From: Puccinia triticina
Taxonomy: Eukaryota; Basidiomycota; Pucciniomycetes; Pucciniales; Pucciniaceae
Direction of reading: 5' to 3'
NCBI RefSeq assembly: GCF_026914185.1
Contig: NC_070560.1
Coordinates: 2,285,501-2,349,500 of the forward strand
Length of the DNA stretch: 64,000 bases
In this document: piece by piece, positions 3,803 through 55,089 of the stretch
Layout of the letters: every line of letters starts with the position of its first letter
Position numbering within the stretch: position 1 is the first letter of the stretch
Position numbers and translations under genes: made by a program
Notes under the pieces: model-generated
Seen by the model: the letters and a program-made list of their open reading frames with translations, nothing else
What the model was told of the DNA's origin: nothing
Database searches by the model: none

Positions 3803-5241
3803 TCAACAAGCGAAGGACTGGAAGTTGGGAGTCTGTGCCTGAGGATTCCAGCGCTGCAGGTCGTCAGCCGATGCGGGAGTAGGAGCGAGGAAAGCGCAAG
3901 AGGATTGGAGGGCGCCGAAGTCGAAAGACACGGGCGGGAGGGGTGCGAGGTGCTGTTGCGGCCACGACTCGGGGCAGGCCGAGAAATCGAGGTAAGCGTT
4001 CATCGGCTCGTCCTCGTCTTCTCCTTCTGACGACGACGCCGATGAGGATGAGGCCGACGTCAAGAAGATCATGTCCGTGTCTTCCGATGAGCCGGTGCTC
4101 GGCCGCTCTGGGGACTGGATCTGTGAGAGAAACAGACGGCTTAATTAGTATCCCACTCCGAAAAAAATAAAGGCTTATCCAACTTGGCGGTGTTTTGTAA
4201 CTTACTTGTTCGGCTGGTGGTGAGGTCGAGACGATCGGAGCGGGCGAGCTGGTGTTGCTCGCCAAGCTCTTCATGGCGGGTGCGGCGGACTGACGGGAGG
4301 GGCACGAGTATGGTTTCTTGCGTGCACGCGCATTGCAGAACTGAAGAAACAGTGAAAGACGTCAGATGAATGCAAGTGGTAGGCTTGGTGATTCTGGATG
4401 AGAAAGCTTACCCATCGGTTTACTTGCTCGCGGGTCATCTTCAGCTCGTAGGCGATGAGATCTTTTTCTTCCGAGGAGAATTGGTTGTCGCGGGCTAGTA
4501 GAGCATTGAGCGCGGCGGTTTGCTCCTTGGTGAATTTCGGCGCTCGGCCTCTGGGTTTGCCGGCGGACTTGACAGGGCCGGATGATGATGGTGTACCACT
4601 TGAGGTAGATGCGGATGACGATGGAGGACTAGACTGGGGAGCTGATTGGGCCGATCTGGATTGTTGGAGGAGAATGTCGACTCGAGATTGTAAGGTGGTC
4701 AGGAGTTTTTGCACGAACTGAGCTCGCAGCCTGTGATGATGATCATGTAAGGCTTGGACGAAGGACGATCGCGAATTGGGAAACGCAGCATTTTCTCTAA
4801 ACTTCAGGGCGTCGGCTTGGTAGGACTTGGATAGTGATTCATCCAGCCTTTGGAGAGTGCAGGAGAACTCGTGGTTCAGGAAGTTAGCGTTATCCGGGGT
4901 GATGCCTACATGTAGTAGTTGAGGAACCAGGCTTCCGACCTCGGGGAATTGGAGTGGGGGGACATCAAAGTGCTTCTGGTTCATGAAGGAGTCGAGCAAT
5001 GAGGCAGGCAGGATTTTGGATGACAGGTTTCGAATTTTGAGGGCCGTGGCACACGTCGCATTCCACCATGGAACAACCATCTTGTCCTCGAGCAGCACGA
5101 TGAATGAAAAATGTGTTCAGTGGGGCCGACTTGGAAGGTAGGGGCTAATGCTAGGTTGCTTGCTGAGTAGTTGGTGTGATTTTGCAGATAGTGAAGCACT
5201 ATGGGGAGGAGTACTTCCGAGTGTTGCCAGGAAGAAGCCAT
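3803..5241 (-). CDS. bE-HD2: Homeodomain transcription factor HD2, mating-type b locus
   Basis: Secure exons are complement(join(3803..4120,4206..4340,4412..5080)), which give 373 residues from the ATG at 5080. The homeodomain (about residues 175-235) has helix 1 around FTKEQTAALNALL, helix 2 around SSEEKDLIAYELKM and recognition helix TREQVNRW-FCNARARKK, keeping the invariant W48, F49, N51 and R53. Intron 1 (4341-4411) splits the gene exactly between W48 and F49. Intron 2 is 4121-4205. The N-terminal 170 residues contain helical segments (about 85-140) that in this family decide self versus non-self dimerisation with HD1. The C-terminus has a Ser/Asp/Glu run (SSSEGEDEDEP). An upstream ATG at 5241 begins MASSWQHSEVLLPI. 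It could join the frame through an intron of about 113 bp (donor 5199, acceptor 5087), but this is uncertain. In rusts the HD2 partner is usually called bE-HD2. A heterodimer of HD1 and HD2 from different alleles acts in the nucleus to set dikaryon identity. Confidence 0.9.
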
Positions 5242-5670: not shown

Positions 5671-7598
5671 GTGCCCATCATGCCAAATCCTCATCTTGGT
5701 CGTCAAGATCTTCCAAATCTCCAGCGTGATCTACTAACGGCTTTGAAAACCCAAGACCCTCATGGTTTGACGAACTTCGAGCGTCAATTCTCCAAATTTG
5801 TGCTTGACTTCGAAAGAGATATCCCAATAAACTCACTCTCTGCGGACGAACTCAAAGCTCATTACTGCTTCAGCCACAATGTTTGTATCGCATCAACGCT
5901 GGCTCAACAGGTTCAGCTGGCCATGGATGAGATATGTGACGACTTCTCTCAGCAGTTGAGCTTCCTGGCTCCACTGGCCGATGTATCGCCGGCCGCCTCG
6001 TCGCCGCCATCCAAAGAACCCGTCGTCGAAGATAACGGCAGTCCATCGACCTCTCACACAATCCTCAAGAACTGGAGTCAAACGTAAGTACATAGCACCT
6101 CGGGCCTTGAGTCTATCCAAACAGGAAGCTCACATCTTTACTGTCTTACCTACCTGATAGCCGCTTGTCGTACCTCTTCCCATCTCCGCTCGAGCTCAAA
6201 GAGCTGGTATCCCACACCTCCATGAGCGAAACGAAGTTGAACTCTTGGTTTCGCAATGCTCGCAGCCGATCGGGCTGGGCGAAGCTATACGCGCTCAAGC
6301 CCGATGTCAATAAAAACCAGGAGAAGCTTCAGTCGCTTATCGATGAATACCAGTCCCTCAAACGTCTGAACACCCCCGAAGAGTTCAAGAAGATCGTAGC
6401 AGCGCACGAGACCTACCAGCTTCTGGAGAAGATCTTCAAATGGTTCGCCACCACCAAGGAAACCAAAGCCGCCTTATCGACACCCAAAGCCGTCAAGCCA
6501 TGGATCAAGGACGTTCTCAGCAGCACCCTCAGCTCCTTGAAGCAAGGCGCAACTGGTGTCTTGGACTCGTCCAAGCAACTCCTACCATCCTTCTCCTCAA
6601 GAGGTACCACTCCGAGCTCCACCACGACCTCTTCGCCCACCGCTTCCTCGCCGCACACCGCGTCTACTGCTCCCACGTCGGTCGCCAGCTCTTCCAGTGA
6701 CCGATCGGACTCGCCGGAACTTTCCCCTCGCCCTGCATCATTATCAACCTCTTCTTCCAGCCCCGTCATCTCTTCTCCCAACCTCCTCCCCGCACCCTCA
6801 TCCATCCCCAACCCTCCTTGCACTGAGCTGCCGGCCGACCTGCTCAAATTCCTCTCCAACCTGCCAAAAGCATCGACATCTTCGCACAGCCCTGCCATCT
6901 CACTTTCACAGATCTCACCCGAACCGCTACCCCCCTCCAACCCCGCTTGCGACCTGTTCTCAGCCGCCTCCCTGGCCTCTTCCTCCAGTCTCCCAGCACA
7001 GCCAAGCGCATCGCTCGAACCTGCCCTGTTACCCTCCGCCCTCCCGCCTGCACCTTCGGCCTGCCCCATCCCCTGGAACAGCAGTCGGCCGGCCCCCTGC
7101 TCCGACTCCTCGAGTCGCCCGTCCTCGTCGTCGTCCATGCCCAGCTCGGTCGTCTCATTCACCAGCAACGCATCTGCACCCGCCGGCATGCCCGCCTCGG
7201 CGGACAAGATTTACATGCATCCCTGGGTCAACCCGCTGCTGCCACGCTCTGCCCGCCCATCCCGATCAGGCTCATCGGGTAGCCTTCAACGATGCGAGCA
7301 TCTGGGATCAGTCTCTCCTTTCTTCTGGAACAGCCCCGAGCAGTCGCCCTTCGCATCGCCCCGCTGCCAGGCCTCCCAGCTCCCCCAAAAATCAATCCCC
7401 TCGGCACAGCCTCCTTTCCAGTTCGTGCTCCCCCAAACCCGGCCCATCGCTCTGACCATCCTCTCGTCTAGTCCCACCGAGCCTGTTACCGACGAAAGGC
7501 CCTCGTCCTCTCACCCTTCCATCTCCTCCGCGCTCTCGAAAAAAACAACACAGTCTTGTCTCTCCGGACAATTCGACGATGCCCCTGAAGACCTCTAA
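5671..7598 (+). CDS. bW-HD1: Homeodomain transcription factor HD1, mating-type b locus
   Basis: Two exons, join(5671..6083,6161..7598), give 616 residues. The intron (6084-6160) has a GTAAGT donor and a CTGATAG acceptor and joins the frames at a phase-2 position. Residues 1-130 form the variable dimerisation region. The homeodomain follows, split by the intron between NWSQT and RLSYLFPSP. Its recognition helix SETKLNSWFRNARSRSGW keeps W48, F49, N51 and R53, and has the GW after the helix that is typical of basidiomycete HD1 proteins. The C-terminal 370 residues are Ser/Pro/Thr-rich and low in structure, as in other HD1 proteins. ATG 5671 is the first in frame. A second ATG nine bases on is also possible. 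Divergent from HD2, it forms the mating-type b pair. Rust papers name this gene bW-HD1. Confidence 0.9.
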
Positions 7599-20159: not shown

Positions 20160-21097
20160 GCGGCCTATAAAAAACGGCTCCGAGTCCTCCAATCCTGTCG
20201 CCTAAGGACACCGGAGGAGACGGCGCAATGAGATGCAGCAGGAACTGAGAGTTTATTGACACAGTTCTCCTCACCATCTGCATCCAAAGCTTGTATTTCC
20301 TTCTCAAAAGCATGCAACCCAAATAAGGTTGAGACTCCGCACGCGCATACATCCAAGTGAAGGTCTCAGGCAAATTGATACACCCCCCAGTAGACTCTCC
20401 GTCCCAGAGTCCGCCGGGTTGTCACCCAGGATTGATGACTCAGCTTCCGGGATTCAGGTGAGCGTAGCCGTCGCCGGAAACACCAGCTGGTTTCCTCCCC
20501 CGCGACGAGTTAGTAAGAAGACGAGGCAATGCGATGATGATGATGATCTTGTCTGTCGATTGTAAGCAGTGCCGGTGGCTCTGAACTGTGGGCGCTTGTT
20601 GCCAGAGTCGCTTGGCATTTCCAGGAGACCAGGTGTTGGTGGGCTGGGCATCTTCTGAACCCTTGGCTGGCCCCGCGACAACTAGCACCCTGACACGCCC
20701 TCCAGCTCGTTCGAGTTGTGTATCAGCTGGCATGAAACAGATCCTTTGTCTCCACTCCGCGCGGCCTTCTCCCCCATCAGTTCCTCCGAAAGCTGACGGT
20801 TGGCTGGATCATGGATGGGTGCGGAAGAAACGGGCGGGACGGACGTGTTGGTAACTGCTGGGGCATGAGGCTGTCTCAAGATGTGTATTCAGCTTGGAAC
20901 ATTTGCCCATCAACGAGCAAGGGCCAGCTCAGCTCACCACCTCCTTCTTGTAAGTATATAGCATCGGTCGCAGCCCCAACTTTCCCCCTCTCCATCCACA
21001 GTCCAGTTTACCTACCCTCAGTCGTACGGCCACCCAGGCCATTTCTATCACATTACCAACACTTTATACATTCCTTACTGCACAACTCGCAACCCAG
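20160..21097 (+). promoter_or_regulatory. Spacer and upstream region of the 21-exon secreted gene
   Basis: From about 20800 the sequence parallels 27180-27486 upstream of the paralogue (GGAAGAAACGGGCG, GGCTGTCTC(A/G)A). TATATAG near 20957 takes the place of the paralogue's TATA box. The pyrimidine-rich leader with CATTCCTTACT ahead of the ATG is shared by both genes. The duplication therefore included the promoter. Confidence 0.6.
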
Positions 21098-24000
21098 ATG
21101 TGTCTCCCAGCCACTGCCACTGGGCACAGGAGTCTTTCTCATTTCGCCCAGCTCATCATCGTAGCATGTCTTTGCACCTCGTTCATCAACGCTAGCCCAC
21201 TACCAGTGGGGACAGCGCCATTAGCACTAATCCAAAGCTCTCATCCTCAGCCCGTCTCCCGCTTGTCCAAAAGGATGTACAGCATGTTGGCTGTTGCAAC
21301 GGGGGCCAAAGCTGGCACCACAGTCCATGATGTGGTCGTCGGCGCTGAAACAGCAAAGGGTCAGTGGGCACCATTTATCTGATTTTCACTTTGCATTCCC
21401 CTAACCTCTAGACTGTGCCTTCCTCTTGCAATCACTCCAACACTGCTCTACCTTGACAGGTAAGTACTTCTTCGCAGCGTGATCTCAAACATAGACACGG
21501 AAAAATTCCTGGAAGCCACACTGATTCCCCACATCTGCAGGTCTCCAATCGACCGTTAGCGGCGTTGAAACAGCCAAGGCTGCCTCAGTAATCCCGGACG
21601 TGGCCGATTTATCCAAACTAGGAAACGCGCAGACCCTATCAAGTAGTAAGAAATTTTCCCTGATCTTTTTTATCGAGCCCGATCGAGGTATGTATCCCTG
21701 TCTGATGATGAAACTACTTCGGTTATATGATCATTCTAGAGTGTTTTCTGCCACCGCTGTGACCGCGTGTAAGCAGCATCTTGCTGAATAATTCTATTTG
21801 TAAACCAGAAGAGGCACTCGCATCCGACTCCAAAGATGTGGTGGATCTAGGCTCAGATGTGGCTTCATCAGGCAACAGTCTGGACAAGTCACAAAAAGCT
21901 ATCAAGCCGAAGACCAACAAGAATCTCGTTCAAGAAGGTACGTCCAGTTGATGAGCTCCCATCGTTCATGACCTGACCAACCCTTCACACTTCCGGACAC
22001 AGACACAGGCAAGACAGTTGCATCTACAGACGGCAAGGGAGCTTCCACCCCCGCCACCGTGGAGAAGACCCCAGATCAAACGAACTTGAAGGATGACATT
22101 GGTAAGAGATACCCTCCGCTCAGTGCGCTCGAGTCTGATCCAATTATCTGACTTGGACAAATGTAAATCAGATGAGGATGTCTTCCACGACGCAACACAC
22201 TTGGATGGTGAAGTTCCAACCGGGACCACATCAGAGAAGATCGGCTCCCAAGCCGGTTTGGTAAAGAGCGATGAGAAGGTTGTAACCGCCGATTCGGCCG
22301 GAAAATCAGCCCTCGCTAGTCAACCAAAGAACTCCGCTTCCGCCGATGGTTCCGTCGCGGAAGGCCAATTCGCCCCAACGGTGGGTGAATTCACCCAAAA
22401 AACAGCGAACGCCGATCAACAGCCACTTGTTACCGAACCCACCTACCGTCAGTGAAACCTGATATCATCCCTCTCCTCTTCTTGACCGCTATTCTTCGAG
22501 CTAACCGAAATATGTCCCAACTCTTACAGTAACAAGACTGAAAAATGCTATCACTGGAGCTCCAGACGGTAAAGCGAAACAGTCCACTCAAATGTTGCAG
22601 CTGAACCCAACCAGCTGATCTTACCTTGATTTATTTCATCAGCTATCCAGAGGATCTTCAGGGGTATCCTATCCAAACGTGAGCTACTAATCATTTTTCT
22701 TTTTCTTGAAATTTGAGAATTGTCTCTCCTTCTGAGTCAAACTCACCCCTGATCCTTTGTTTGTGAAATCGGAACTCAGCGATCAAAGCACCGCCCACAC
22801 TCGGCGAGACACTCGACAAGCCCAAAACAGTGGGCACTAATGTGGCCACGGAAGCCTCCCAAGTCAAAAATGGTGCGCGATGTATTGCCGGCCATACCTC
22901 GCTCCCTGCCAGCCCCACTGACATCGCCTCTTGTTATGATCACCCCTACCTCGCCGTTACCGTAATCAGAACCCGCGAAGTTGACACCAGACGCTTCCCC
23001 ACCAGCAACCCCTAAGAAAGTTCAATTTAAAACTGGCCCCACAGACAGAAAATCTGTCACCAACCCTACGGAAGCCGCCTCGGCTGGTGCGTGATGTTTT
23101 TCGCCCGCCAGAAATCGTTTTTCAGTCTAGCTGACATTGACTCTTGTAATTCTGACTCTAACCTCCTTGCCACCGTAACTAGACGCCGTGAAGTTACAAG
23201 ACCCTCCCCGTTCAGCAATCAAGAAAAGTGGACCCGCGAACTCCGCTGACAAAGTGCCTGACAACACTAAGACCGAACCCGTGGACTCCGCCAAGAAAGT
23301 GCCTGACAACTCTAAGACCGAACCCGTGAACTCCGCCGACAAAGTGCCTGACAACCCTCAGACCGGGCCACAGTCGAATCCTCGTACCACCTCCAACCCA
23401 ACAGACGCGAAAGTGGCCCCGAAAGCCTCGGGCGGAGCTACCAACCCAGAGACAGTCGCTACTAAGCCCGGCAAATGTCAGTGGAGCCTGATATCATTTA
23501 TTGTCTTCTTCTTCTGAAACGCGTTGCCCGCTGTTCTTCGAGCTAACCAAAATATCTCCCGACGTTTAAAGTGGCAGCACTCCGCCAGCAATTTTCAAGC
23601 ATTCCATTTCGTAAATCTCAGATACTTGACATAACTGCAACAATTGGACGCAAACAGCTGACTTAACCTTGACTTATTGCAGCAAAATTCCAAAAAGTCT
23701 TGAACATTTTCAGTAAAAGTGAGGAACGTCTCATGCTATTTTTCCCTTGAACATCTGAGGCTGGTCTCGACTCTGACTCACACTTCTGATACTTTTTTTG
23801 ATACTCGGTGGTCAAAGAAGCAACGTCGGTCGACGAGTTGGCAAAACCTATCGGCCCCAAAACAGCCGAAGAGACCCAGACTTGGTTCCAAAAAATGAAG
23901 ACATCCGGTAAATTCCAACTGTAAAACTCGTCATCCGAGTCCCGAATAGCGAGAAACTGAGTAGCGCTTGTGTCATTTCCCAGCCGGCAATTTCAAACTC

Positions 24001-25107
24001 AATCCCTTCTCAGCAAAACAGACTCCGGAAGCGGTCCTGAAACCCTCTCCTCGTGCGTGATGTCTTGCCAGCCGGAGCTCGTTTCTCTGCCAGTCGAACT
24101 GACATCTCTCGTTATCGTGCTCAAATTCCTAGCCCCCCAAGGAGACCCAGTGAAGACAACAATAAATCGCCCTACAAGCGTCGCGGAGAATTCTAAACCC
24201 ACAGTTCCCAAAGAAACGGCAAACCCTCCCACCACCAAGTCGGGTAAAGGTGACGTACCCCCGCCCAGTGCGTGATGTTTTCCCGCCAGAACCCATTTGC
24301 CTACCAGTCTAACTGACATTGCCTCTTGTGATCATGACACGAATCTCCCCGCCACCGTCACTAGACACCGTACAGTCGGCTGAATCTCGTCCTCCAAAGA
24401 TCCAGAAGGAAGAGGCGCCCCGTGATGCACCCACCACAGAGCAAACGGCAAACCCTACCGCCACCACAGCGGCTACTCAAGCGGCCTCGGACGCTTCCCA
24501 CGTCAAACCCGGTGCGTGATGTTCAGCCCGCTAGAACCAGCTTGTCTCCCAGTCGAACTGACATGTCGCTAATCCCCCCACCACCGTAACTAGATTCCTT
24601 AGGACGTCCTTCAATATCCCAGAGGTTTAGTAAGTCAAAACTCCTCCCCTTCGATAAGCTAACCGAGATACACCGAGCACCGTTGACCTTTGCCGCTTTC
24701 CCATCAGAATCACTCCTTTCAGACATGCGGAACTGTCAGTTCTATTCTTGCTATCGACGTCTCTCACCTGATGATCATATTTGGCGCAATTGAGCACTAA
24801 CCCACAATTAATTTTGTTTCTTCCAAACCCTCAGTTTTCAAGAAGCGCTGTGAGTGACTTATTTTAGGCCCACCGTTACCCCGTGATGTGCCGCTAAATA
24901 GGTTTTTGTTTTTCCGCGGACAGTCGCCGACCCCTTGAAGACATTCTGGAGGCAAATCACCAAAATCCGCAGAGCAGGAATTAACAAGGGTGAGACACAA
25001 GTTGTTGACTTCCCTGTCCACCATCAACACAGCTGACAGTTTTTGGTGCATCCAACGCTGCAGTCCGCCCAGAAGTAGGCCCACAAGCGGCCAAACCCGC
25101 AGCATGA
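21098..25107 (+). CDS. Secreted modular micro-exon protein A (21 exons, all introns phase 1)
   Basis: My splice model has 21 exons: 21098-21359, 21541-21645, 21809-21937, 22009-22101, 22172-22447, 22530-22568, 22643-22678, 22780-22872, 22970-23086, 23183-23476, 23572-23610, 23683-23718, 23818-23907, 23984-24052, 24133-24267, 24365-24511, 24594-24629, 24708-24734, 24835-24849, 24924-24989 and 25064-25107. The sum is 2148 bases, 715 residues. All 20 introns are GT-AG and phase 1. Residues 1-36 carry a signal peptide (core LIIVACLCTSFINASPLP). A Kex2-type KR follows near residue 60. The body is Pro/Thr/Lys-rich and probably unstructured. Exons of 15, 27, 36 and 39 bases encode short basic/hydrophobic helical pieces (AIQRIFRGILSK; KFQKVLNIFSK), and the last exons are basic. 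Exons 6-10 and 11-16 look like duplicated blocks. No known domain. Function is unknown; a secreted host- or wall-interacting protein is possible. Confidence 0.75.
23235..23370 (+). repeat. Tandem 45-bp (15-residue) repeat inside exon 10 of protein A
   Basis: Three consecutive copies of the pattern (N/D)SA(D/K)KVPDN(T/S/P)(K/Q)T(E/G)P are encoded, with very similar DNA (GACAAAGTGCCTGACAAC). This is a recent in-frame expansion within one exon. Confidence 0.85.
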
Positions 25108-27320
25108 TTCTCAGCCACGGTCAAAGCTGCCCGCGTCTCTGGAACATTCCTCTGGACTGGCAAACCAGGCGCAGCTCCCACGGCGGTTGGGGAGGGACTT
25201 TCACTAACTAATATTCCATCTTTGACCAACCTTTTCTATGTAGCTTTTTCTTTCCATCAGTCACTAGCGCAGTCCGCAAGTCTACAAAAACAGACGTATA
25301 CCTGTTCATTCATTCGTTTTCTTCGTTGATCCTTACCCGCCAATCCACTTATTCTGATTAATTACATACATCATTTGTCTCAAGCCCCAGCCTCCAGAAT
25401 CTCGCCCTGACACGAGGCTGTCTCTTCTATGCCAAGTGCAGGGCGCTCCAAAGCTTGGGTGCAACAAGATCATGCATCGTTCCTCTGAACCGATGATCCC
25501 TTTTCTCCTCATTTACCATTTGACACATTGTACTTAGACCCACTTTTTCAGCAAAATCCAATCTTTTGTACTTACAACCGGACAAGGAGAGCAACAACTG
25601 TCACATTCAAGTTCCCTGTTTGCACCAAAATCCCATCCCAAAAGACAACATGAGATTGTTTGTCCAGCAGCCAAGACCTGGGAGACTCTTGATTTGATTG
25701 TCAAGATTCCTAAAGAATACAGTATTTTACTGGGTTGGCCGATGTTTAGCTGACTGCTGACTTGGTTCAGCTGGCATAACTAAGTCCCCCTCTGATCAGG
25801 GAATTAGTGAAGCTAGCTTCAGCAGGACATCTCCTATTCCTAGAGGACTGGTAAATTATTTTTCGCTCAGCCATGCAAGGGCTTCACAAAATTGGTGGCT
25901 TTTGGCCAAATTCCTGAATCAAAGTAAGAGTGCCTTGGGCACAAAATTTTGGGAGGACAGTACATTTGAGGCACAAAAGTGGCCGCAGTGGATCGTTTTC
26001 CAAGAAAAAACAAAACAGTGGCACGAACGAAACTGGACAGACAGGAACGTGGAAACAATTCTAGCGCTTAGCTGGATTGGAGGGGGACTTGGTCAAGTTT
26101 GGGCATAAGCCCCGCTTGCACCTTCAGGTCTCCCGGCGATGCTCGCGGGCTTTGTCCCGCTGGGCCAAACCGCCGTGCCGGTCGTGAAAGAGCAGGGCTA
26201 GCCGGCCGCCGATTGGACCTGGCGGGTTTCCATCAGGCATTTACACATATCCAACCCGAACGATCAGTCCTGCCTCACGCGAGCAGGAAGCACAGCCTGG
26301 TCGACAAGGAGGAATCCGTCTCGGTCCAGCACTCGTCGGCGGGAGGGTTTCCCGCCCTGCAATCAGGCTAATATAGAAACCGCGCCAGCGGGAGGGTTTT
26401 CTCCCGGTCGTTCAGGCCACACAACCTGTTTGACAAGGTCAGCTTCCGGTCGATCAGGTTTAAACGCTCTCGATGACCAGCTTGTCTAGCCTGCCGGAAG
26501 GCCTCCCACCGACCAGTGGTGGACCACGATGGTTTCCTCTATCTTGTGTTGCCTGATTGCTTGTAAGACTGCAACCTGATTGATCGCGTCGCGGAAATGT
26601 ATTCTGCCGGAGCGAACCCGGAAGAAACCCGCCGGGTAGAAACCGTGGCCGGTAGCCCTGTTATCTCTCGACCGGCACGGCGACTGAAGCCTATGTATGT
26701 ACATACATTTGATATTATGTTTCGGTCGGCGGAATTGAGCAAAGTATTTATGTGAAACTCCGAAGTCAAAACTCACTTCACCCCAGGCGATGTACCCGAC
26801 CCGCAATGGGCCATGACCGGCGGGTCGACCGCTCCGGGTCATGCTTGGCCTTCAAGCTGGCCCGTAAAGGTACACATTTCTGAATGAATGCGGTGTTACT
26901 GATAGGAAATATGTAAACTTGGGACGTACTGTCACCAGGGACCCAATTTTGATTAAGTAGTCGCAAGATGAAACACCGGACTTGACTTCCATTCTATCGC
27001 CGGCTGGAGTTGTCCATGCAGTTCGGCCGCGTGGGCAGCCCCCTGAGACACCCCCCAGCTCTTTCATCTGGGAAGGAATAAGCAAGCATCGGTATGAAAC
27101 AGTTCCTTCGTGTTTCACTCCGTGGGGTCTTTTCCCTCTTCCAGCCCTCCGAATTTCGAAGGTTGACTGTTCGCTGGATGGGTCCAGAAGAAACGGGCGA
27201 GAAGAGTCGGTAAAATGGACGTGTACGGGCATCGGGTTGTCTCGAAATGTGTATGGCCAAGGATTCGTCTTGGAACACCGGCCTGAGACTCTGTGCCCAT
27301 CAGCGAGGAATGGCCGGCAC
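25108..27320. other. Intergenic between the two paralogous secreted genes
   Basis: The 3' part next to gene A (25108-25320) resembles the sequence after gene B (AGCCACGGTCA, TCACTAGC, GTTCATTCATTCG). From 26110 to 26860 the DNA is GC-rich with short inverted words such as GGCGGGAGGGTTTCCCGCC and many CCGG-type sites. This may be a relic of a non-autonomous element, but I found no clear ends. No gene is supported. Confidence 0.45.
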
Positions 27321-27329
27321 CCCCCTCCA

Positions 27330-27337
27330 TATAAATA
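27330..27337 (+). promoter_or_regulatory. TATA box of secreted gene B
   Basis: TATAAATA lies 150 bp upstream of the ATG, followed by a pyrimidine-rich leader. Confidence 0.6.
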
Positions 27338-27486
27338 TCCAGCATCAGTCGCCGTCCTTCCGCCCCCACCCACAGTCACTTATCTATTGTCAGTCTCAAG
27401 GCCCTCCAAGCCCTATTTATCACATCCAGGCTATAATTATTACACTACCTACATTCCTTACTACCCAAAGCAAAGTCACAGCCGAG

Positions 27487-29781
27487 ATGCGCCTGCCAGC
27501 CACTGCGTCTGGACGAGCCAGTCTTTCTCACTTCGCCCAGCTCATCATCGTAGCATGTCTTTGTGCCTCGTTGCTCAATGCTAGCCCACTGCCAACGCCA
27601 TCAACCCCATTAACACTATCCACCCAAACATCTTATCCTCAGTCCTTCTCCCACTTCGCCAAGAGGAACATCGTCAATCTTGAAGAGGAAACCAACGCTG
27701 TCATCACAGCAGGACACTCTGCCGCCGAAACCCTCAATCCGACAAGGGGTCAGTCCACACCTTTTCTCACTTTGCATCCCCCTAAGCCCTCGACTGAGCC
27801 TCCCTCTTCGGTTTCACTTCCCCTACTGGATTAGGCAGCGCTAGCGCAGCAGACAAAGTCCCGGCCACCACTGATTCCCCCACGTTGGGCAGGTCCACCT
27901 CTCTCCCCAACCCCTCCTCACACAATTGGCCCAATGTCGCACTCAAGACTAACGCAGCACCGGAAGTGAAGGGCACCACTGCTTCTCCGACGTTGGCCAG
28001 TACCGGATCCGCCTCCCAAACTGCGAAGACCGAGGATGCAAGTAGTAAGTAAAACTCACTGATCAGTTTGTTCGAGTTTGAGCCAATGTCTGGCTTACAC
28101 TATGATTGCTCTAGAGTGTTTTTGTCCCGGTGTTGACCGCGTGCAGGCGTTTTGATCAATAATTCTCTCCGTACACTAGCTGCCGTTGTGAGCACACAGA
28201 ATGATGCAGCACCTCCACCGGCTGCTGTCGTGGGCACACAGCACGAGGCAGCACCAGAAGCAGTTGTCGATTCCTCGGTGAACCCCGAGAATGACCCCTT
28301 CAAACTAGGTACGTCTAGTCGATCAGCACCTATCGTTTAGATCTGATCAAACCCTTTCACTTCCGTGCCCAGGTGAAGCCAAAAAGATTGCAACCACAGC
28401 AGACACCAATTCCCTTCCCCAGGATGTGGCTACATCACATAGCAGTCCGACCACCTCAGTCGCGCCACTAGGAGAAGACCAGTATCCGATCAATTTCTCA
28501 AAGAGTACGTCTTATTGCTGACCTCCCACCCTTCAAGATCTGACCAAACCCTCCAGCCCCGCCACTAGGAGAAGCCCAGTTCCCGATCGATTTCTCGCCG
28601 GATCCCAAGACGAACGTCGTCGAAAAGGGTACGTTTTATTCATGAGTTCCCATCCTTCATGGTCTGACGAAACCCTCTTTTTTCCTTACTCAAACACAGG
28701 CAAGAAGATTGTAAACGTCGATTCAAACGGTGCCTCAACTGACGCTGAAAAATCCGCCCAGCAAGTGACCGGTGCTCAAACCACCGGAAACACCCCAGAA
28801 GAGCAAGTGACCGGCACTCAAACCACCCCGAAGACCGCAGAAGTGCAAGAGTCGAGCAGACCTTCCACTGCTGCTCAAACCGACAGATGTTAGTAAAACC
28901 CTATACCACCTCACTCTTCCTATTTGACTCGACTGCTGTTCTCTGAGCTAACTGTAACATATCCACCCATTCCCTCTACGTTTTACGTGTCATCCACCGA
29001 AAGTGGAAGAGAAGAGACCTCCCTCCATCCAAGTAACCAACCTCAATGGCGAAACCAATTCACCTCCAACTGAGGTTACCACTCCACCTCCAACTGAGGT
29101 CAAAGCTGCAAAGACACCCACTGACACAGCCGCAAAGTCGACTGAGGTCCCCCATGAATCTATCGCCCCTGAACAAGCCAAAGAACCCACGCGCTGGCAA
29201 CGCCTCAAAGATCGGAGTAAATTTTAGCTTTTCAACTCATCAATTGGGTTCAAAGCCTTGAGAAATTGAAGAGTTGGTTATATCACTTCACAGGTCACAA
29301 GGAATATCTCGAGGCCAGGGCACGACGCCAGAGGTTTACCGCCTGGTTCAGCGCAAAGTCCCAGAGCATTAAGAAATGGATCAAGAGTGAGTCAACGTGT
29401 CCTCTGTTCTGATGGGCTGTCCCATACCCATGTGTAGCGTTAACCTTTGTCGCTCTCCAATCAGAGAGATTTTTCACCCAAAAGCCAGCGAAGGACCAAC
29501 AAACTAAGCCCAAGAAATCACTTTGTGAGTGGCTGGTTCACGTCCGCTGCTGCCTTGTGACGCGCTGCTTAAACTGCATTTGTTTTACTGAACCAACAGT
29601 GAGGAAGTATTTGAAAAAACTACGCAAGTTCCTCGGACTCAACAGAAAAGCCAAAAAAGCTAACAAAGCAAATGCCCAGGGTGAGCACAGCTTTTGTTTT
29701 CCCTGCCGACCAAATCTTCTGACCGTCTTTGCTACATTCTACGCCGCAGTTGCCCCCGAAGCGGCGCCTCATGCAGCTTGA
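27487..29781 (+). CDS. Secreted modular micro-exon protein B (11 exons, all introns phase 1)
   Basis: My model has 11 exons: 27487-27748, 27835-28044, 28180-28308, 28373-28504, 28557-28628, 28700-28888, 29004-29216, 29294-29386, 29465-29524, 29600-29680 and 29750-29781. The sum is 1473 bases, 490 residues. All 10 introns are phase 1. Exon 1 is 262 bases, exactly as in gene A, and encodes a signal peptide (core QLIIVACLCASLLNASPLP) and a KR site (HFAKRNIV). Exon 3 is 129 bases in both genes, and the last exon ends VAPEAAPHAA against VRPEVGPQAAKPAA in A. Exons 4 and 5 each encode a PLGE-(D/A)Q-(Y/F)PI-(N/D)F-S motif. Exons 8-10 are strongly basic and amphipathic (FSAKSQSIKKWIK; LRKYLKKLRKFLGLNRK). 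It is the shorter paralogue of gene A, 6.4 kb downstream on the same strand. Function is unknown. Confidence 0.8.
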
Positions 29782-32309
29782 TTACCCAGCCACGGTCAGA
29801 GCAGTCCCATCAAACTGGACTCACATGACCAAACCATTCATTGAATAATTTTCCACCCGTCATCGCTTGTCTCTGTGTACATCTTTCTTTCTAAAAATCA
29901 CTAGCATAGCCCGCCACTCAAAAAAAATTCACATAGCTGTTCATTCATTCGGCGTCTTCCACAATCCTTACTATACCATCCACTTACAAACCTGCCTCAC
30001 TCACGGAGTCACACTCGTTAATCACATCATTTTACAGACCTTTTAAAAACATATCACTCTGATCCCATTTGTACAGGAACAGACTCCCAGCCTCTGCATT
30101 GCTTATGGAAATACATGAACGCTTTGAAATACCAGTCCCTTTGAATGGTCGGAATGAGCGCAGCGAGATTGTCGCGAGTAATTTGGAAGCTTGCGCGTTT
30201 CAGAGCTGCTGATGTGAAAGGACGCTTTGAATTACCAGTTAAAATGGCCACAGTGAGCTCAGCGAGATCCTCGCGAGTAATACGGAAGCATGCGAGTACA
30301 GAGCTGCTGATGTGATCATCATGGGAGATACTGTCCGGTTTTAAACTCGCACATGGATGGTTTAGGTTATGCATGTGGTGATGCATAAATCCGGGGTGCA
30401 TGCGATGCTCAGGCTTTGTCGATCGACTAGGACTTCGGACTGGGTTTTCTTCCGATCAACCATCACTTCTCGCCGATAAACTTCTCTCCCCTTTTTCTTT
30501 CTTTCTTCTCAAAATCGAATCTCTACAATCATCAATCGATAATCGATCATCAAACTCGAAGGTTATTCTTCTTCGTAACCTAATCAACCAAATCGAACGT
30601 ACAATCTCAACCATCGTCGATCTCTGACATCTAGGAGGAGCTAGATCCAGCTTCTTGGCAGGTAGTCTATTTAGTTACCTCATCTATCCTTAACATCATG
30701 TATTAAGATATTGACATTGTTACATTGTTTTGCTAGGCTGTTTCGTCGTGATAATCCTTGTGTCTTACATTGTCGTCGTTGCTATTGTATCAAGATTTTT
30801 CTTTTTGCGTGATTCATATCTTTGAGGTATTTTTTCATTATTGTTATCTATCCTTCTACAAAACCGATTCTAACAATTGTTTTTCTTTATTCAAAAAGTG
30901 TATTACTTTTATTGAGTTCTTAAATTATAACTGTTTCAAAAAGTAATCTATTTACCATTTTTACAGATACATCCCGAGTGTGTTGGGGACCGCTCTGGTC
31001 TTCATAATCTCAAGTCTGATTTGGTCCACGCAGTAAGCAAATGCTGACTATTTGTGAAACTGAACCCCACAAAACCCGGCAAGCGTTTACTTGACTAAGG
31101 GGAGGGAAGAGTACATGAAAAATACATCCTTTTGTACATCAAGCATTGCAGTGAACACTGATTGGGCCAACATCCCCCGAAAATCCCGCAATAAGGCTGT
31201 GTATGTCAAACGTAATCTTGAAAGGCAGAGAAATAATCCTGAAATGAATTGAACAAGAGATTCTTTGTTGGAGATACATAGAAAAGAAAATCGCAACAAA
31301 GAGACTACAATTGTTGACTGATATAGTTGATTGGTAGAAGTGAACCGTGATACATCAAATTCACTTTGAGGTTTGGTTGCGTGAATAAAACAGGAATCAC
31401 TTGTTTCCATGTGAACCTTCGAAGTCGACGGATAAAAACCTTGGCCTGATGTAAATTCATATCACTCTTTCTGATCGCGGGAAGATCTTTGTAATGATTC
31501 GGAGTGCTCGATCGCGGTTTGCGAGGAGTTTTGCTCTTTTCTAACGGAGGGCGTCGTTTCTTATCCGCGATTATGTCCGCTTTCCGGCGGTCTAATTTGA
31601 TGGGGCTCAGAGTCTATCAGTTACTGCAAAAATGGATGTCGGGTCCAATTTGAAAGACGCGCTCACAGTATGGAACCCGCTGTCGTGGCCTTCTTGATCT
31701 CGGTTTATCACGAAAAGTCATCGAAAGCATCAGGTTCAAGGGTTTTAGCTTCTCACGGGGAGTGCTGCCCTCAAATGCATTTTCCTTGCTACTTAGGTCA
31801 GTTTTGTCTAGAGTATTTACTGAATATGCTCTCTCTGAAAGCAAATCCGAAAGAAAAAAGACGATTGGTCATAGCCCAACTGATGATCAGGATCAAGAGT
31901 TATGCTCACCTAATTTCATTCGAGAATCAAACACACCGAGGCCTCCTATTCTCGGCGATGATACCTTAATATAAGCCGATTTGGCCCTTGACATGGATTT
32001 CTGGTGGTCTGCCAAAAATTTCATCAAACTTCAGGATGCAGTACTTTCGCAATTTGAAGCAATCAAATAAGAGAAACTAACGTGGTACTGCATCGACCAC
32101 TGGTGGTTGATGCGGAGGGGCTTATCAAAGGCTTAAATTTCAGATGACCTCTTGAGAGATGAATGGAGCAAAGTGTGCCTACCAGAAGAACCGTCTGAAG
32201 CTTTCATAGCTTCCACATAGAATTTACTTCTGCAAGAAGCGCAAAGTAAGGTTAAGGGAAATATCCCATCAGCTGCAACGCCTACTTCAAGAAAGATTGG
32301 AATGTATTA
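29782..32309. other. Intergenic with a tandem repeat and a CT-rich leader-like stretch
   Basis: 30119-30217 and 30222-30314 are two diverged copies of a block of about 95 bp (ACGCTTTGAA, CAGCGAGAT, TCGCGAGTAAT, CAGAGCTGCTGATGTGA). 30470-30640 is CT-rich with repeated ATCGAT/AATCGA words and may be a relic of a retroelement leader. An open frame at 31617-31844 (minus, 75 codons, basic centre) has no splice link that I can prove. Confidence 0.45.
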
Positions 32310-46593: not shown

Positions 46594-49500
46594 TCAGAGT
46601 TTTCTTGAATGGAACAGCTTCACATGCGGCGCCGCATACCTGCGCTTGAGTTCTTGACCGTCAAGTTCTTCTAAAGTATATGAGCCACTTTTTTCTTGTG
46701 ATTTTATGCGGTACGGCCCATTCCAGCGGTTTTCAAAGAGCTTTCCCCACTGACTTTCTAGGGATTTATTGTACACAAGAACTAGGGATCCCGGCGTAAG
46801 CGGTCCTCTGTCTGGTTTCTTTTGATTCCAATATTCGACAGAATTTTCCCTGGAGTCCTTCATGTTCTTGTAGGCTTCTTGCAAAATTGATTCTCTCCTC
46901 TCCAGTTGGCGAACTCTGGCAAGGAGAAGGTCTGCGGTTGATTTTACTGACTCCCAATCAGTCCCTAAGAAAGTTTCCAGTTCGAGGTCAATTGGTAAAA
47001 CCGCCGGTTGGCCAAACATGAGTTCATAAGGCGTATAACCAGTGGTTCTCTTCGTAGAAACTCTATCCGCAAAAAGGACAAGAGGTAAGTAGCTGCGCCA
47101 TTTCTTTCCGTCCGTCCCAGCCAGTTTAACCAAGGTATCTTTAATGGGCTGATGACCTCTTTCTACCATCCCGTTTGCTTCCGGATAATATGGCGTAGTG
47201 ACTTTTACAATGGATCCTTTCTGCTTTAAGCAATCCTGAAGTTCCTTCCCAAATTCCGCCCCGCCGTCGACTACAACTGTGTGAGGTGCACCATATCTGA
47301 AAATCCATTCGTCCGTAAACCACTGCGCAATCTTTTTAGCTTTAAGAGTTTCCAATCCCACAGCTTCAACCCATCCGGAGAGATCATCTCTTGCAATCAC
47401 TAGATATTTCCACTTTCCCGCTTTAATATGTACTGTATCCATACTGACGCGCCCAAAAATGGTAGATTTCCCTGTTGCGTGCTTATGTTCCAAAGGTTTC
47501 AAGGGGCTCCTCTTCTGACAGGCGTTGCAGGACTGGACCCAACTCTTGACTTTTCTTTTCATGTGCGGCCACCAAAACCTAAGCTTAGTCCGTTTGTAAG
47601 TTTCTTCCACTCCTCTATGGCCAAGTTGTTCGTGAAGCGCCTCCAGAATGTGTTCCTGGTATTTTGGATTGCTGATAACTAGTTGCGGGAAAGGTTTATT
47701 TCTCTTTTTAAGTTTGCCGTCAGAGACCATGAAGCCGGCAGATTTATGCTTTATTACTTTCCAATCCGCGTCAGAGGTATCTGTTGGCCTATTTAGAGTG
47801 AGCAAATATTCTTGAAGCTTGCCCCAAATTCCTTCTTGCTGAAATTGACCGCGCTCCACCCCCAAATTTAAAGTGTTAACTTCTTTGACGCCAAAACCGG
47901 GATGAGGCTTAATCCATTTCTCATCTTCGTCAAAACTGGGCTGCTCTCCTTCATCATCGTCTGGCGGTCTTCTAGATAATCCGTCGGGCATAGTGAAAGT
48001 TTTCCCAGGGACGTGAACCAAATTATAAGAGAATAATTGAATAAAAGCCACCCAACGAGTCATGGGAGCATTTGGAAGATCAGGTGAGTTAATCATTTCT
48101 ATAAGGCTTTTAGCGTCCACTAAGAGGTCGAATTGCTGGCCCCAAAGCTGAGTTTGTAATTTTTTTAGGATTTTTGCGACGCCACAGAGCTCCAGTTTTG
48201 ATTGAGAATATCTGGATTCCACCGGCGAAAAAACCACGGATTCGTATAAGACTGGCCTGTCTTTCTGGTTATCTTCTTGAGTGAGTACTGCTCCTGCCGC
48301 AATGTAGCTAGAATCCACCGCTAATTTTATTTTTCCTGCTCCTTCAGAGTAGTCCAATTTTTTTAGAGTTATATCATAACCTACTATCCGTTTCAAAAGA
48401 TCAAACGCATCCTGGCACTCCTTTTTCCAGTTCCATTCCGCGTCTTTTCTGGTTAATTTTCTAAGCGGTGCGGCAAGCTCTGAAAGTCCTTTAATAAACA
48501 TCCTGACATAGACGCAGACTCCTAGAAAACCTCGAACTTCCGTTGCATTTTTTGGTACCGGCCATGTTTCAATTTTATTTAGCTGTTTTTTCGAAATTTT
48601 TCTGCCCTCCCTGCACACAAGGTGACCCACAAGATCCAACGCGGGGACGCAGCAGGCAAATTTCTTTCCGGAAATTGTGAGTCCAGCTTCTTCTATTCTA
48701 AATAAGATCCGCTCCAGAGTGACGGCGTACTCCCAGATAAATTTCCTGATGCCAGGGTTTTCTGCCAAAGTTTCTTGATTGTAATCTGAAACAGGACCTT
48801 TTATACCGCCATCATCAATGAATATACCAACATTTTGAGGAATTTCGTCTTGTAGAATCCACATCATTTGCGCCTGGTATACGGCGACAGAATTGGTTGC
48901 TCCTTGTGGTAATCTGGTAAGCTGAAATCGTCCCAGAGGAGTTACAAAGGTGGTTAATGGCCTAGATTCTAATGATAACTCTCTTTCATCGTAGCCTCCC
49001 ATTATATCTCCCAGACCGTAGCAAGCTCTCCCGGTAAAAGATTCAATTAATTCTTCCGGTGAAGGCGGTATTCCAGAGTCCTTAATTGTTACTTTATTGA
49101 GTTTTTGTAAGTCGTGGACAATCCTGAGCCTTCCATCTTGTTTTTTGACGCAAAAGACCGGGCTAGAGTAAGAGGAATAAGACTGCTCATAAAGACCTGT
49201 TCGGATGCGCTCCCGTACTAACTCTATGAATTGATCTTTAATTGCGGCAGGAATTGGAATAGGTCGCTGCTGCCAAGGTTCGTGGGCGATGACGGGAATG
49301 ATGTAAGGTTTCCCGTAAGTGTGTTTGAGAAGTCCTCTCTCTTCCTCCCGAAAAGCAAGTCCTCCCTGCCGCATTACGATGATATGTTTGAATAATTTAA
49401 GTTCTTCAGGTTTGAGCCACCCGGGTGGACCGAAATTAATGACTTTAAGGCGGTCTTCTGTGATTTTCCAAGTAGGGGTAAAATTAGGCGGGTGAGGAGT

Positions 49501-49652
49501 TAAAGGTGTTACATAAGGATCTCTAGATAAAGGAGGACTACATAAGGGTGAGTTTATGTTCTGCGGCATGAACTGATTTACTGGCTTGATTTTTTTTGAC
49601 GTTGATTTATATTTTGCCGCAAACACTAACTTTTCTTTTACACTATATTTGG
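46594..49652 (-). CDS. pol: Pol of inner gypsy element (RT, RNase H, integrase), -1 frame
   Basis: The open frame runs from about 49697 (after frameshift) to 46594, over 1020 residues without a stop. The RT core has LTRLPQGATNS and IFIDDGG (an FIDD form of the YxDD box). RNase H begins around LAVDSSYIAAGAVLTQ and includes ESVVFSPVESRYSQSKLEL. Integrase has an intact HHCC zinc site (HEQLGHRG to SCNACQK). The DDE triad is D in SMDTVHIKA, D in VVVDGGAEFG and E in GMVERGHQ. A GPYRI module follows. There is no chromodomain. It has no ATG near its start, consistent with expression by frameshift from gag. It belongs to Ty3/gypsy by domain order RT-RH-IN. Confidence 0.95.
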
Positions 49653-49698
49653 GCACCTTCCAATCACCTACTTCTGGAAGGTGCCAGAAGCTAAAAAA
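49652..49698 (-). promoter_or_regulatory. -1 programmed ribosomal frameshift signal between gag-pro and pol
   Basis: On the minus strand the slippery heptamer T-TTT-TTA (49698-49692) lies in the right phase of the gag frame (CAT TTT TTA). A 6-nt spacer (GCTTCT) follows. Then comes a perfect 10-bp stem GGCACCTTCC/GGAAGGTGCC (49685-49676 with 49661-49652) closing a 14-nt loop. Pol lies in the -1 frame and is open from the slip point. The gag stop (49670-49668) sits in the loop. Confidence 0.9.
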
Positions 49699-53337: not shown

Positions 53338-55089
53338 ATGGGCTCAAGTCATGAAGGCAGCGAACACCTTGGAACAAGCCTACAATCAGATGTAGATAGA
53401 GATTTTATTTTTCACATGTTTGATAATTTGTATGGAAACTTGTCTACTTTACATAGTAACTCTAGTAACCAATATAAATTTACAAACTCTAAAATTGTGG
53501 AATGTCATACTTCTGTTATTAACACCCTTGAGTCTGCTGTTAGCCGAGCAATAAAAATGTCTCAAGAATACTTTGTTAAAATTCCTGAGTTTCGCCAGGA
53601 CATAGGAGAACTTAAGAATAACCTCAGTAAGGTAACAACAAACCTAGAAAATCAGGCTGAGATCCATCAGAGTCTGCAAGACAAACTTACTGATATTGAT
53701 ATTGGTATGGCGGACTTTAAAAGTCAATTGTTAACCACTTTGAAAACTGAGGTTATCAAAGAAAACAGAGAGCGTGGAGACCACCAATCCGCCCAGTTAC
53801 AAATCTTGATAGATTTAGTAAGTCATCAAGAGGATAACATGAAAGAGATTATGAATAAAATCAATACCTCTACTGCGGAGAAAATGGAGGACTTCCCGTC
53901 GAGTCTGGGAGCCTCCCAGATCTCAATTTACACAACGCAACTCTTAATTTTCAGGATCAAGGAAAATGTTTTCTTAAGCCTGTAGTTTGTTGCTCTCATG
54001 TGTGCTGTTCGTGGTTTTGGTAGGTGTCTTAATTTAGGAATTAGAGAGGCATTTAGAGCTCTCTAAATGCCGACGGGAAGTCCTCCAATTAGCTCTCTGA
54101 AACAAGAGATAAAAACTCTTAAACAAAATGTAGCGGGAATACAAACTCCCCCGCACCTGAGTCGTAACCCTGAAACTTCTCAGATGGAGGAATTCATTTT
54201 CAACAATCCTCTGCTAAATACCAGAAGCAGAGTGTTTCAACACCAAGAGAGATCTTTACCTCCCAAAGAAGAGGAACCAACTGCTCCGCCCTGGCAAAAT
54301 GCTGCTAGTGATTCTCAACCATACCAAGAACAACCTAGACAGACCACTTCCTTTTTGAATAGTTTGTATGCAGTAACCAAATGCAAACTAATGCCGCCAA
54401 TGAAAGAATGGCCTAAATTCTCCGGAGAAGGAGAATATGATCATATCTACTTCATGGATTATGTAGATCATCTCCTTGAGTGTTACAAAGCTACTGATGA
54501 AGTAGTAACCTCCAGATTGCCAAGGTTGTTTGAAGGAGTAGCTTTAGACTGGTTCTTCAGAAAAAAGAAATCTGTCGGAAAAATAAGCTGGGAAGAGTGC
54601 AAGAAACTGATCCACAAACAGTTTGGTACAGATGTCTGGGAGGATAAAATGCTAGCGGCATATGAAAATGATTTCTTTGATCCTGCTAAAGATGATCCTT
54701 ACAAATGGTGCCTAAGTCAGAAGAAAAAAATTGACTGTATCTACGACCAACCCTCTCAGAAATTTGTCACCAAGAAAATCTTGAAAAAGTGCCCTAATAA
54801 TCTAGAACATGATGTAATGTGCAGATTGAAAGATGCCGACGTTGATTTGTCTGAATTGGTAGCTACCATAGAAATAATTATTGTAGCCAAGAAATTAGAC
54901 AGAAGACCCAAAACGTACAAAGAAAGGCGTAATCTAGCTCCTAAAGAGAACATGGCCACAGACAAAAAGAATACAGAAATGCCTCCTAGGAAAACAGCTG
55001 GTATTGAGTGCTATAATTGTGGAGAGAAAGGCCATAAGAGACCTGATTGCCCTAAACCCCGTAAACGCATCAACAATATCGAAGTGTAG
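53338..55089 (+). pseudogene. gag: Chromovirus gag, broken by a foldback insertion
   Basis: The first part (53338-53884) is a helical, coiled-coil-like segment. The second part (54088-55089, same frame) has the capsid core (MKEWPKFSGEGEYDHIYFMD; RLPRLFEGVALDWFF; KLIHKQFGTD) and one zinc knuckle (CYNCGEKGHKRPDC). The insertion at 53885-54087 adds a stop at 53983-53985. A TAG at 55087-55089 separates gag from the protease in the same frame; it may be a mutation or a readthrough site. The 5' end overlaps ORF1. Confidence 0.75.
53885..54087. mobile_element. 203-bp foldback element in chromovirus gag
   Basis: A 17-bp arm TGGAGGACTTCCCGTCG (53885-53901) has a perfect inverted copy at 54071-54087. 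A second internal hairpin, GGCATTTAGAG/CTCTAAATGCC, abuts the right arm. It interrupts the gag frame with a stop. Confidence 0.72.

What the first reader, a model, noticed from the sequence alone, without database searches (positions are those of the whole stretch)
21098..25107. Secreted gene with 21 exons and 20 introns all in phase 1, including 15-39-bp micro-exons
Seen: a complete splice model in which every internal exon is a multiple of three and every intron interrupts after base one of a codon. If phases were random this would have odds of about one in 3 to the 20th. Known: schistosome micro-exon genes use symmetric exons to create secreted protein variants by skipping. Inference: this rust gene may generate many secreted isoforms in frame, a possible diversity system for a host-facing protein.
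Basis: partly seen in the sequence, partly recalled or inferred. Interest (0 to 1): 0.88.

Follow-up and report, generated by a model that had tools for sequence, protein, structure and literature searches.

The report
Rust gene of same-phase exon cassettes
In the wheat leaf rust fungus, a gene for a predicted secreted, predicted mostly unstructured protein is modelled as 22 exons that all break at the same codon position, so exon pieces could be copied or lost, and possibly skipped, without breaking the reading frame, and some have been copied.

Summary
Window 21098-25107 is Puccinia triticina Pt15 haplotype A gene PtA15_3A279. Its deposited 747-aa protein maps onto the window with 22 exons and 21 introns (reader: 21/20), all phase 1, with seven exons of 15-39 nt. 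Three paralogs follow the same rule (22/22 deposited; 10/10 and 7/7 read by hand): 60 of 60 introns as modelled. Chaperonin genes of the same genome have mixed phases (8/6/5). Gaps where both paralogs are coding are multiples of three in 10 of 10 cases, in introns 1 of 12. The odds of 1 in 3^20 are wrong: introns fall into about 14 sequence families because exon-intron cassettes were duplicated. Short exons encode nearly all predicted body helices of an otherwise disordered chain; the body changes at about the neutral rate behind a conserved signal region. My reading: in-frame cassette turnover in DNA, likely in a host-facing secreted family. In-frame splice isoforms are possible (229 of 231 joins make no stop) and deposited models differ in micro-exons, but none was observed. 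It resembles schistosome MEGs and aphid bicycle genes without being a member. It lies 13.5 kb from a likely HD mating-type locus.

The parts
21098..25107 (+). Gene G1 = PtA15_3A279, 22 exons, 21 phase-1 introns, start codon to stop codon
21098..21359 (+). Exon 1 (262 nt): signal-like N-terminus, pro-region with Lys-Arg at residues 58-59, start of mature part
   Evidence: signal region dN 0.08-0.21 among paralogs
21412..21459 (+). Exon 2 (48 nt)
21541..21687 (+). Exon 3 (147 nt in the deposited model; 105 nt if the donor at 21646 is used, 102 nt with 21643); tandem donor AAGTAGTAAG present in all five family loci
21809..21937 (+). Exon 4 (129 nt)
22003..22101 (+). Exon 5 (99 nt)
22172..22447 (+). 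Exon 6 (276 nt)
22530..22568 (+). Micro-exon 7 (39 nt), predicted helix; absent from deposited model PTTG_03695
22643..22678 (+). Micro-exon 8 (36 nt), predicted amphipathic helix
22780..22872 (+). Exon 9 (93 nt)
22970..23086 (+). Exon 10 (117 nt)
23183..23476 (+). Exon 11 (294 nt)
23572..23610 (+). Micro-exon 12 (39 nt), counterpart of exon 7 (flanking introns 6 and 11, 7 and 12 alike)
23683..23718 (+). Micro-exon 13 (36 nt), counterpart of exon 8 (introns 8 and 13 alike)
23818..23907 (+). Exon 14 (90 nt)
23984..24052 (+). Exon 15 (69 nt)
24133..24267 (+). Exon 16 (135 nt)
24365..24511 (+). Exon 17 (147 nt)
24594..24629 (+). Micro-exon 18 (36 nt)
24708..24734 (+). Micro-exon 19 (27 nt); counterpart in paralog G3 is 21 nt and left out of its deposited model
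24835..24849 (+). Micro-exon 20 (15 nt)
24924..24989 (+). Exon 21 (66 nt), predicted basic amphipathic C-terminal helix
25064..25107 (+). Exon 22 (44 nt) with stop; most conserved exon of the 3' block between G1 and G3 (39/44)
27487..29781 (+). Tandem paralog G2 (BBBD counterpart PTTG_03694): 11 exons, 10 introns all phase 1; exons 27487-27748, 27835-28044, 28180-28308, 28373-28504, 28557-28628, 28700-28888, 29004-29216, 29294-29386, 29465-29524, 29600-29680, 29750-29781

Best explanation
This is one of four apparently intact P. triticina genes whose modelled introns all lie in phase 1, and it likely encodes a secreted, host-facing, mostly disordered protein that diversifies mainly by in-frame duplication, loss and divergence of exon-intron cassettes, with in-frame exon skipping a possible second source. 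Shown: uniform phase in the models of four paralogs; cassettes duplicated together with their introns; gaps between paralogs in shared coding stretches always multiples of three; a conserved signal region in front of a body that changes at about the neutral rate. Predicted: the short exons carry basic amphipathic helices and the long exons carry disordered linkers, so that each cassette would add or remove a helix or a linker without touching the frame. Inferred: a conserved Lys-Arg near residue 58 is cut by a Kex2-type protease; the helices touch membranes or a host partner; the uniform phase persists because only symmetric cassettes can be copied or lost harmlessly. Untested: expression stage, real isoforms, destination and function.
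For: 60 of 60 introns in phase 1 over G1 (21) and G3 (22), both deposited models mapped exactly, and G2 (10) and G4 (7), read by hand. The G2 model agrees exon for exon with deposited PTTG_03694 apart from its 59-aa N-terminal extension, one residue at a tandem donor and two substitutions. Cassette copying: G1 introns 6/11, 7/12, 8/13 and 9/10/15/16/17 are alike; G3 carries a two-exon unit of about 424 bp three times, introns 95-99% and exons 85-96% identical. Deposited PtA15_3A327 has four SEKSGSQDG units, the BBBD protein PTTG_27988 has two. Gaps: 10 of 10 multiples of three where both copies are coding (9 of 9 without the 21-nt exon that the G3 model omits), 1 of 12 in introns (Fisher for 10/10 against 1/12, p 3e-5). 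79 of 98 residues from the eight short exons are helical in the predicted model against 14 of 495 in the rest of the body. Five of the six strongest amphipathic stretches of G1 fall wholly or partly in those exons, and the last 90 residues of all four proteins are basic. Signal region dN 0.08-0.21 against 0.45-0.62 in the rest of exon 1 over six paralog pairs. Controls with mixed phases.
Against: No transcript, protein or function data were seen. G4 and the sites of G2 were chosen by hand. dN/dS in the shared coding part of the G1-G3 3' block is 0.99 to 1.17, not above 1 (bootstrap P of dN at or below dS 0.510 and 0.344); a first estimate of 1.18 (bootstrap 0.246) included 72 nt of G3 that its deposited model does not code. 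In the G3 cassettes synonymous differences also exceed intron differences and one of three pairs is not significant, so relaxed constraint, or conversion of introns, explains the data as well as positive selection. Exons are slightly less conserved than introns in one of three alignable blocks (0.75-0.76 v 0.79), not in the others (0.82 v 0.74; 0.67 v 0.68). The helix model of G1 has mean pLDDT 33.6 (best part 60-66); in G2 a 72-nt short exon is not helical. The copy-number difference rests on a fragmented BBBD assembly and may be a collapse. About 14 intron families remain unlike each other, so traceable duplication does not explain all 21 phases.
Confidence: 0.6

Rival explanations
1. A micro-exon splicing system: the symmetric exons exist so that alternative splicing can produce many secreted isoforms in frame, as proposed for schistosome MEGs.
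For: 229 of 231 exon joins make no stop; PTTG_03695 omits exon 7 exactly and in frame; PtA15_3A327 omits a 21-nt micro-exon; an in-frame tandem donor AAGTAGTAAG is present in all five loci, and deposited models use two different donors at that intron: the upstream tandem site in G2 and G3, a site 42-45 nt further on in G1.
Against: No reads seen. Automatic pipelines often miss micro-exons (general knowledge; PMC10526429 says the same of MEGs), so model differences are weak. PTTG_03695 also starts at Met60 and reads into intron 11, so it is a poor model. Joining exon 11 to 14, that is skipping both micro-exons of a pair, makes a stop.
Confidence: 0.25
2. Passive history only: one ancestral phase-1 gene grew by unequal crossing-over of exon-intron units; uniform phase is inherited, the body is under weak constraint, and the pattern has no present function beyond keeping a frame.
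For: Recent and old cassette copies; dN/dS near 1 in the body; one degenerate family member on contig 13 with a stop in exon 1.
Against: Short exons keep predicted helix and basic charge while their sequence changes; frame and signal region are kept in four genes; about 14 intron families show no traceable common origin yet all are phase 1.
Confidence: 0.3
3. Artefact of choosing splice sites by eye: with many GT and AG sites a same-phase chain can be built almost anywhere.
For: The finding was made by eye; alternative in-frame donors exist (intron 3); the free-phase finder did not call every intron phase 1.
Against: Deposited models agree: PtA15_3A279 and PtA15_3A327 by exact mapping, PTTG_03694 by protein alignment; gap lengths obey the exon/intron partition; resampled sequence gave no uniform path with 8 or more introns in 60 trials.
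Confidence: 0.03

Closest known systems
Schistosome micro-exon genes (MEGs)
   Same: Signal peptide followed by a rapidly evolving body, disordered in the members studied; micro-exons mostly multiples of three; some members with amphipathic membrane-binding helices; mature dN/dS above signal-peptide dN/dS (PMC10526429, PMC4350168, passages read).
   Different: In MEGs very small exons make most of the coding region and introns reach kilobases; here micro-exons make 10% of the CDS and introns are 52-121 nt (163 with the other donor). No MEG-like sequence came up in the protein searches. Splice isoforms are documented there, not here.
Aphid bicycle genes
   Same: Plant-facing secreted family, many small exons, nearly all internal exons in one phase, sequence evolving faster than gene structure (PMC9168663, passages and abstract).
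   Different: Bicycle internal exons are phase 2, these are phase 1; the recalled paired Cys-Tyr-Cys motifs are not possible: P0001 has two Cys after the signal region and the G2-G4 proteins none.
Class 1-1 exon modules of animal extracellular proteins (recalled, no call)
   Same: Phase-1 symmetric units behind a signal peptide, copied in frame.
   Different: Those modules fold as stable domains; these are predicted short helices and disordered linkers in a fungus.
Fungal Kex2-processed repeat proteins (recalled, no call)
   Same: Predicted secreted, repeated, a Lys-Arg near residue 58 in all four genes.
   Different: Dibasic sites do not separate the repeats.

Membership tests
Schistosome MEG | Most of the coding region in very small symmetric exons | tested here: not met
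   Seven exons of 15-39 nt = 10% of 2202 nt; definition from passages of PMC4350168 and PMC10526429
Schistosome MEG | Micro-exons mostly multiples of three | tested here: met
   All 20 internal exons of G1 are multiples of three
Schistosome MEG | Long introns between micro-exons | tested here: not met
   Introns 52-121 nt in the deposited model, up to 163 nt with the other donor
Schistosome MEG | Signal peptide and secretion | tested here: inconclusive
   Hydrophobic N-terminus conserved in four genes, predicted helix 11-30; no dedicated predictor or secretion test was run
Schistosome MEG | Splice isoforms by micro-exon skipping | tested here: inconclusive
   Only deposited models differ; no reads available
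Aphid bicycle gene | Internal exons nearly all phase 2 | tested here: not met
   All phase 1
Aphid bicycle gene | Paired Cys-Tyr-Cys motifs (recalled) | tested here: not met
   P0001 (G1) has Cys only at 2, 24, 26, 89 and 99; the G2, G3 and G4 proteins none after the signal region
Kex2-processed repeat protein (recalled) | Repeats separated by dibasic sites | tested here: not met
   KR/RR at 58, 710 and 727 only in P0001; in P0003 at 57, 577, 755 and 1018, not between the four units
Any Pfam or PDB family | Sequence match over cut-off | tested here: not met
   Pfam best E 0.054, below its cut-off; no PDB match at E 1 or better

The most novel reading that the evidence does not exclude
A fungus has convergently evolved a micro-exon diversity system: helix-bearing micro-exons and linker exons, all phase 1, are reshuffled both in DNA (cassette copy number) and in RNA (in-frame skipping and tandem donors) to make a cloud of secreted variants, and the tandem pair G1-G2 sits beside the multiallelic HD mating-type locus, whose heterozygosity keeps two divergent cassette sets in every dikaryon.
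Probability: 0.2. Interest if true: 0.85.

Novelty: new variant of a known kind. Interest (0 to 1): 0.62.

Why it matters
Secreted families built of many small symmetric exons are known from schistosomes and from sap-sucking insects. A further case in a crop rust would suggest that such architecture recurs where secreted proteins must change fast without losing their frame. It would also mean that automatic gene models, which here disagree on micro-exons, can misread such families.

Tried and rejected
Rejected: the odds of 1 in 3^20 (introns not independent). Rejected: a claim of positive selection. The first estimate (dN 0.386, dS 0.326, intron 0.315) counted as coding 72 nt of G3 that its deposited model does not code (the acceptor before it is not AG); redone on shared coding only, dN/dS is 1.17 (79 codons) or 0.99 (85 codons, with the 21-nt micro-exon). 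The gap count of 12 of 12 in exons used the G1 exon borders alone; two of those gaps lie in the same stretch, hence 10 of 10. Rejected: a conserved extra exon inside intron 3 (about 29 nt in G1, about 31 nt in G3, by eye; not multiples of three). Nothing in Rfam for 20500-30500.

Searches for relatives: (one protein; alignment) returned only P. triticina proteins; both scored only the roughly 8000 candidates sharing most words. One search (N-terminal region, 98 candidates) returned only its own query although paralogs are known, so it is no evidence of absence. No other rust genome could be searched.

Literature: bear on novelty, 18 and 31 were for methods papers. No paper with the four locus tags; no paper with micro-exon, rust fungi and effector together; one paper with both Puccinia and microexon, a Rhizoctonia genome paper seen only in the listing, 256 papers held at least 3 of 5 terms, 15 were listed and none of the 15 held a microexon term. 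A germinated-spore proteome paper (PMC13190833, passages) does not hold the string PTTG_0369 in its main text. Supplementary files could not be searched.

First free-phase run: G1 19/19, G3 24/24, G4 7/7 phase 1, but trained on G1 and G3 themselves with exonic bases in the site model; the G2 start was one base off and that row was dropped. One search repeats it with intronic bases only, leave-one-gene-out for G1 and G3; in two of three weightings it ends G4 at an earlier stop instead of using the GC-AG intron of my reading. Chaperonin control: eight of the loci used; loci C11:5760 and C7:4230, one segment of C15:2524 and the isolated hits were left out; 6 of 25 introns unassigned. Fold search not run because model confidence is too low.
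Full report
What it is. The gene's deposited protein is PtA15_3A279, 747 aa, on a contig of 8,806,656 bases, the length of contig C3.

The structure. My parse by hand gave 22 exons, 21 introns, all phase 1. An exact spliced mapping of PtA15_3A279 without any phase constraint gave one solution with the fewest introns: 21, all phase 1. PtA15_3A327, a paralog about 485 kb away on the other strand (G3), gave one such solution with 22 introns, all phase 1. The tandem neighbour G2 (window 27487-29781) has 10 of 10 and G4 (contig 3, beside G3) 7 of 7, one of them GC-AG; these two models were read by hand. PTTG_03694, from a gene set guided by RNA-Seq (PMC5295586, passages), agrees with my G2 model apart from a 59-residue N-terminal extension, one residue at a tandem donor and two substitutions. 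A fifth locus on contig 13 is degenerate, with a stop in exon 1.

Is it more than chance? A Viterbi gene finder with no phase preference, intronic splice-site models only and, for G1 and G3, training on the other gene, called phase 1 for 15-17 of 18 introns in G1, 22-23 of 23-24 in G3, 9-10 of 10-11 in G2 and 6-8 of 6-9 in G4 over three weightings. On 60 resampled sequences (model trained on both genes) it gave phases 0/1/2 = 128/144/144, a mean of 6.9 introns, no uniform path with 8 or more introns, and a best score of 40.7; G1 scored 222 at the same weighting with the model trained on G3. In the same genome, eight chaperonin loci gave 8/6/5 for phases 0/1/2 over the 19 of 25 introns assigned, and trial models of the two homeodomain genes in the window gave 2,0,0,2 and 0,0,0 (best-scoring trial models only). 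The exon calls are tested by gaps between paralogs in three alignable blocks: 10 of 10 gaps where both copies are coding are multiples of three (9 of 9 without a 21-nt exon that the deposited G3 model omits; six of them rest on the hand-read G2 and G4), against 1 of 12 in introns (p 3e-5 for 10/10 against 1/12).

Why the odds are not 3^-20. Introns 6 and 11, 7 and 12, 8 and 13, and 9, 10, 15, 16 and 17 are alike, so exons were copied together with their introns. About 14 intron families remain; if independent, that is still about 6e-7. G3 shows the process recently: a two-exon unit of about 424 bp in three copies (a fourth, longer copy of the large exon follows), with introns 95-99% and exons 85-96% identical. 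PtA15_3A327 has four SEKSGSQDG units and PTTG_27988 of isolate BBBD two; this may be true variation or a collapse in a fragmented assembly.

What the modules encode. The signal region is conserved among paralogs (dN 0.08-0.21; dS 0.13-0.44), whereas the rest of exon 1 has dN 0.45-0.62 and dS 0.30-0.88 over six pairs; one pair has equal dN and dS in the signal region. A Lys-Arg follows at residues 57-60 in all four. The long exons are rich in Pro, Thr, Ser, Ala and Lys. The eight short exons (7, 8, 12, 13, 18-21) are enriched in aromatic (9/90 v 9/520), hydrophobic (29/90 v 79/520) and basic residues (21/90 v 63/520). AlphaFold2 gives a disordered chain (mean pLDDT 33.6) whose body helices fall mostly on these exons: 79 of 98 residues against 14 of 495, a value reached by 2 of 592 circular shifts; exon 14 (90 nt) holds 12 of those 14. 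The confidence of these helices is low (best 60-66). In G2 (P0005) the C-terminal helices reach block means of 80-89 and cover exons 8 (31/31) and 10 (25/27), part of 9 (9/20) and the end of 7 (8/71), and not the 72-nt exon 5 (0/24).

Selection. In the G1-G3 3' block, on stretches coding in both deposited models, dN is 0.320 and dS 0.275 (79 codons; bootstrap P of dN at or below dS 0.344); with the 21-nt micro-exon 0.360 and 0.363 (85 codons; 0.510). Intron divergence there is 0.315. So the body changes at about the neutral rate. An earlier estimate included a stretch of G3 that its deposited model does not code and is superseded. In G3 cassettes nonsynonymous differences exceed intron differences in two of three pairs (p 0.007, 0.011; third 0.325), but synonymous differences are also above intron differences. 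The safe statement is: frame, signal and helix chemistry are kept, sequence is not.

Splicing. 229 of 231 possible exon joins make no stop; 11 to 14 and 11 to 19 make TAA. Deposited models differ in frame: PTTG_03695 skips exon 7 but also starts at Met60 and reads into intron 11; PtA15_3A327 leaves out a 21-nt micro-exon that the free-phase finder includes. The tandem donor AAGTAGTAAG is present in all five loci; deposited models of G2 and G3 use its upstream site, those of G1 a site further downstream. These are leads, not isoforms.

Relation to known systems. The architecture works like schistosome MEGs and aphid bicycle genes in that small symmetric exons carry a fast-changing secreted protein, but it fails defining tests of both (micro-exon share and intron length; phase and cysteines). 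I found no sequence relatives outside P. triticina in the two usable protein searches, and no description in the held library by the searches named in Tried and rejected.

Context. 13.5 kb upstream lie two divergent homeodomain ORFs about 1.1 kb apart (one Pfam match over its cut-off, one just below), matching the described HD mating-type locus (bW-HD1 and bE-HD2 about 1 kb apart and outwardly transcribed; PMC10977897, passages). That paper reports conserved gene order around this locus among the P. triticina haplotypes tested. Linkage to a locus that is heterozygous in the dikaryon could keep divergent alleles of G1 and G2; this is inference.

Noticed in passing
window 4271-5098 (-) and 6165-7598 (+): Divergent pair of homeodomain ORFs about 1.1 kb apart (PF05920 over its cut-off, PF00046 just below): very likely the bE-HD2/bW-HD1 mating-type locus, 13.5 kb from G1.
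   Followed up: partly
window 46594-52214 (-) and 54067-61607 (+): Gypsy-type retroelement ORFs (reverse transcriptase, RNase H, integrase, protease or zinc knuckle domains) downstream of the gene pair.
   Followed up: no
G000 C3:2788200-2796600 (L009, L025): A second, inverted pair of the family (G3, G4) about 480 kb away: the tandem pair seems to have been copied as a pair.
   Followed up: yes
G000 C13:903710-903892 (L010): Degenerate fifth member with a stop in exon 1; tandem donor AAGTAGTAAG still recognisable.
   Followed up: partly
window 21643-21808 (intron 3): Intron 3 holds a stretch (agtgtttt...cgtgtaagc) recognisable by eye in several family loci; length differences are not multiples of three, no Rfam match; role unknown.
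   Followed up: partly
window 21098-25107: Deposited models of this locus disagree (late start, skipped micro-exon 7, read-through into intron 11 in PTTG_03695): secreted genes with micro-exons may be under-annotated in rusts.
   Followed up: partly
L009 reverse strand 6279-6350: In G3 the acceptor matching that of G1 exon 17 reads TAACTCG instead of TAACTAG, and the deposited model begins the exon 72 nt later, again in phase 1: an exon border that moved in frame.
   Followed up: partly
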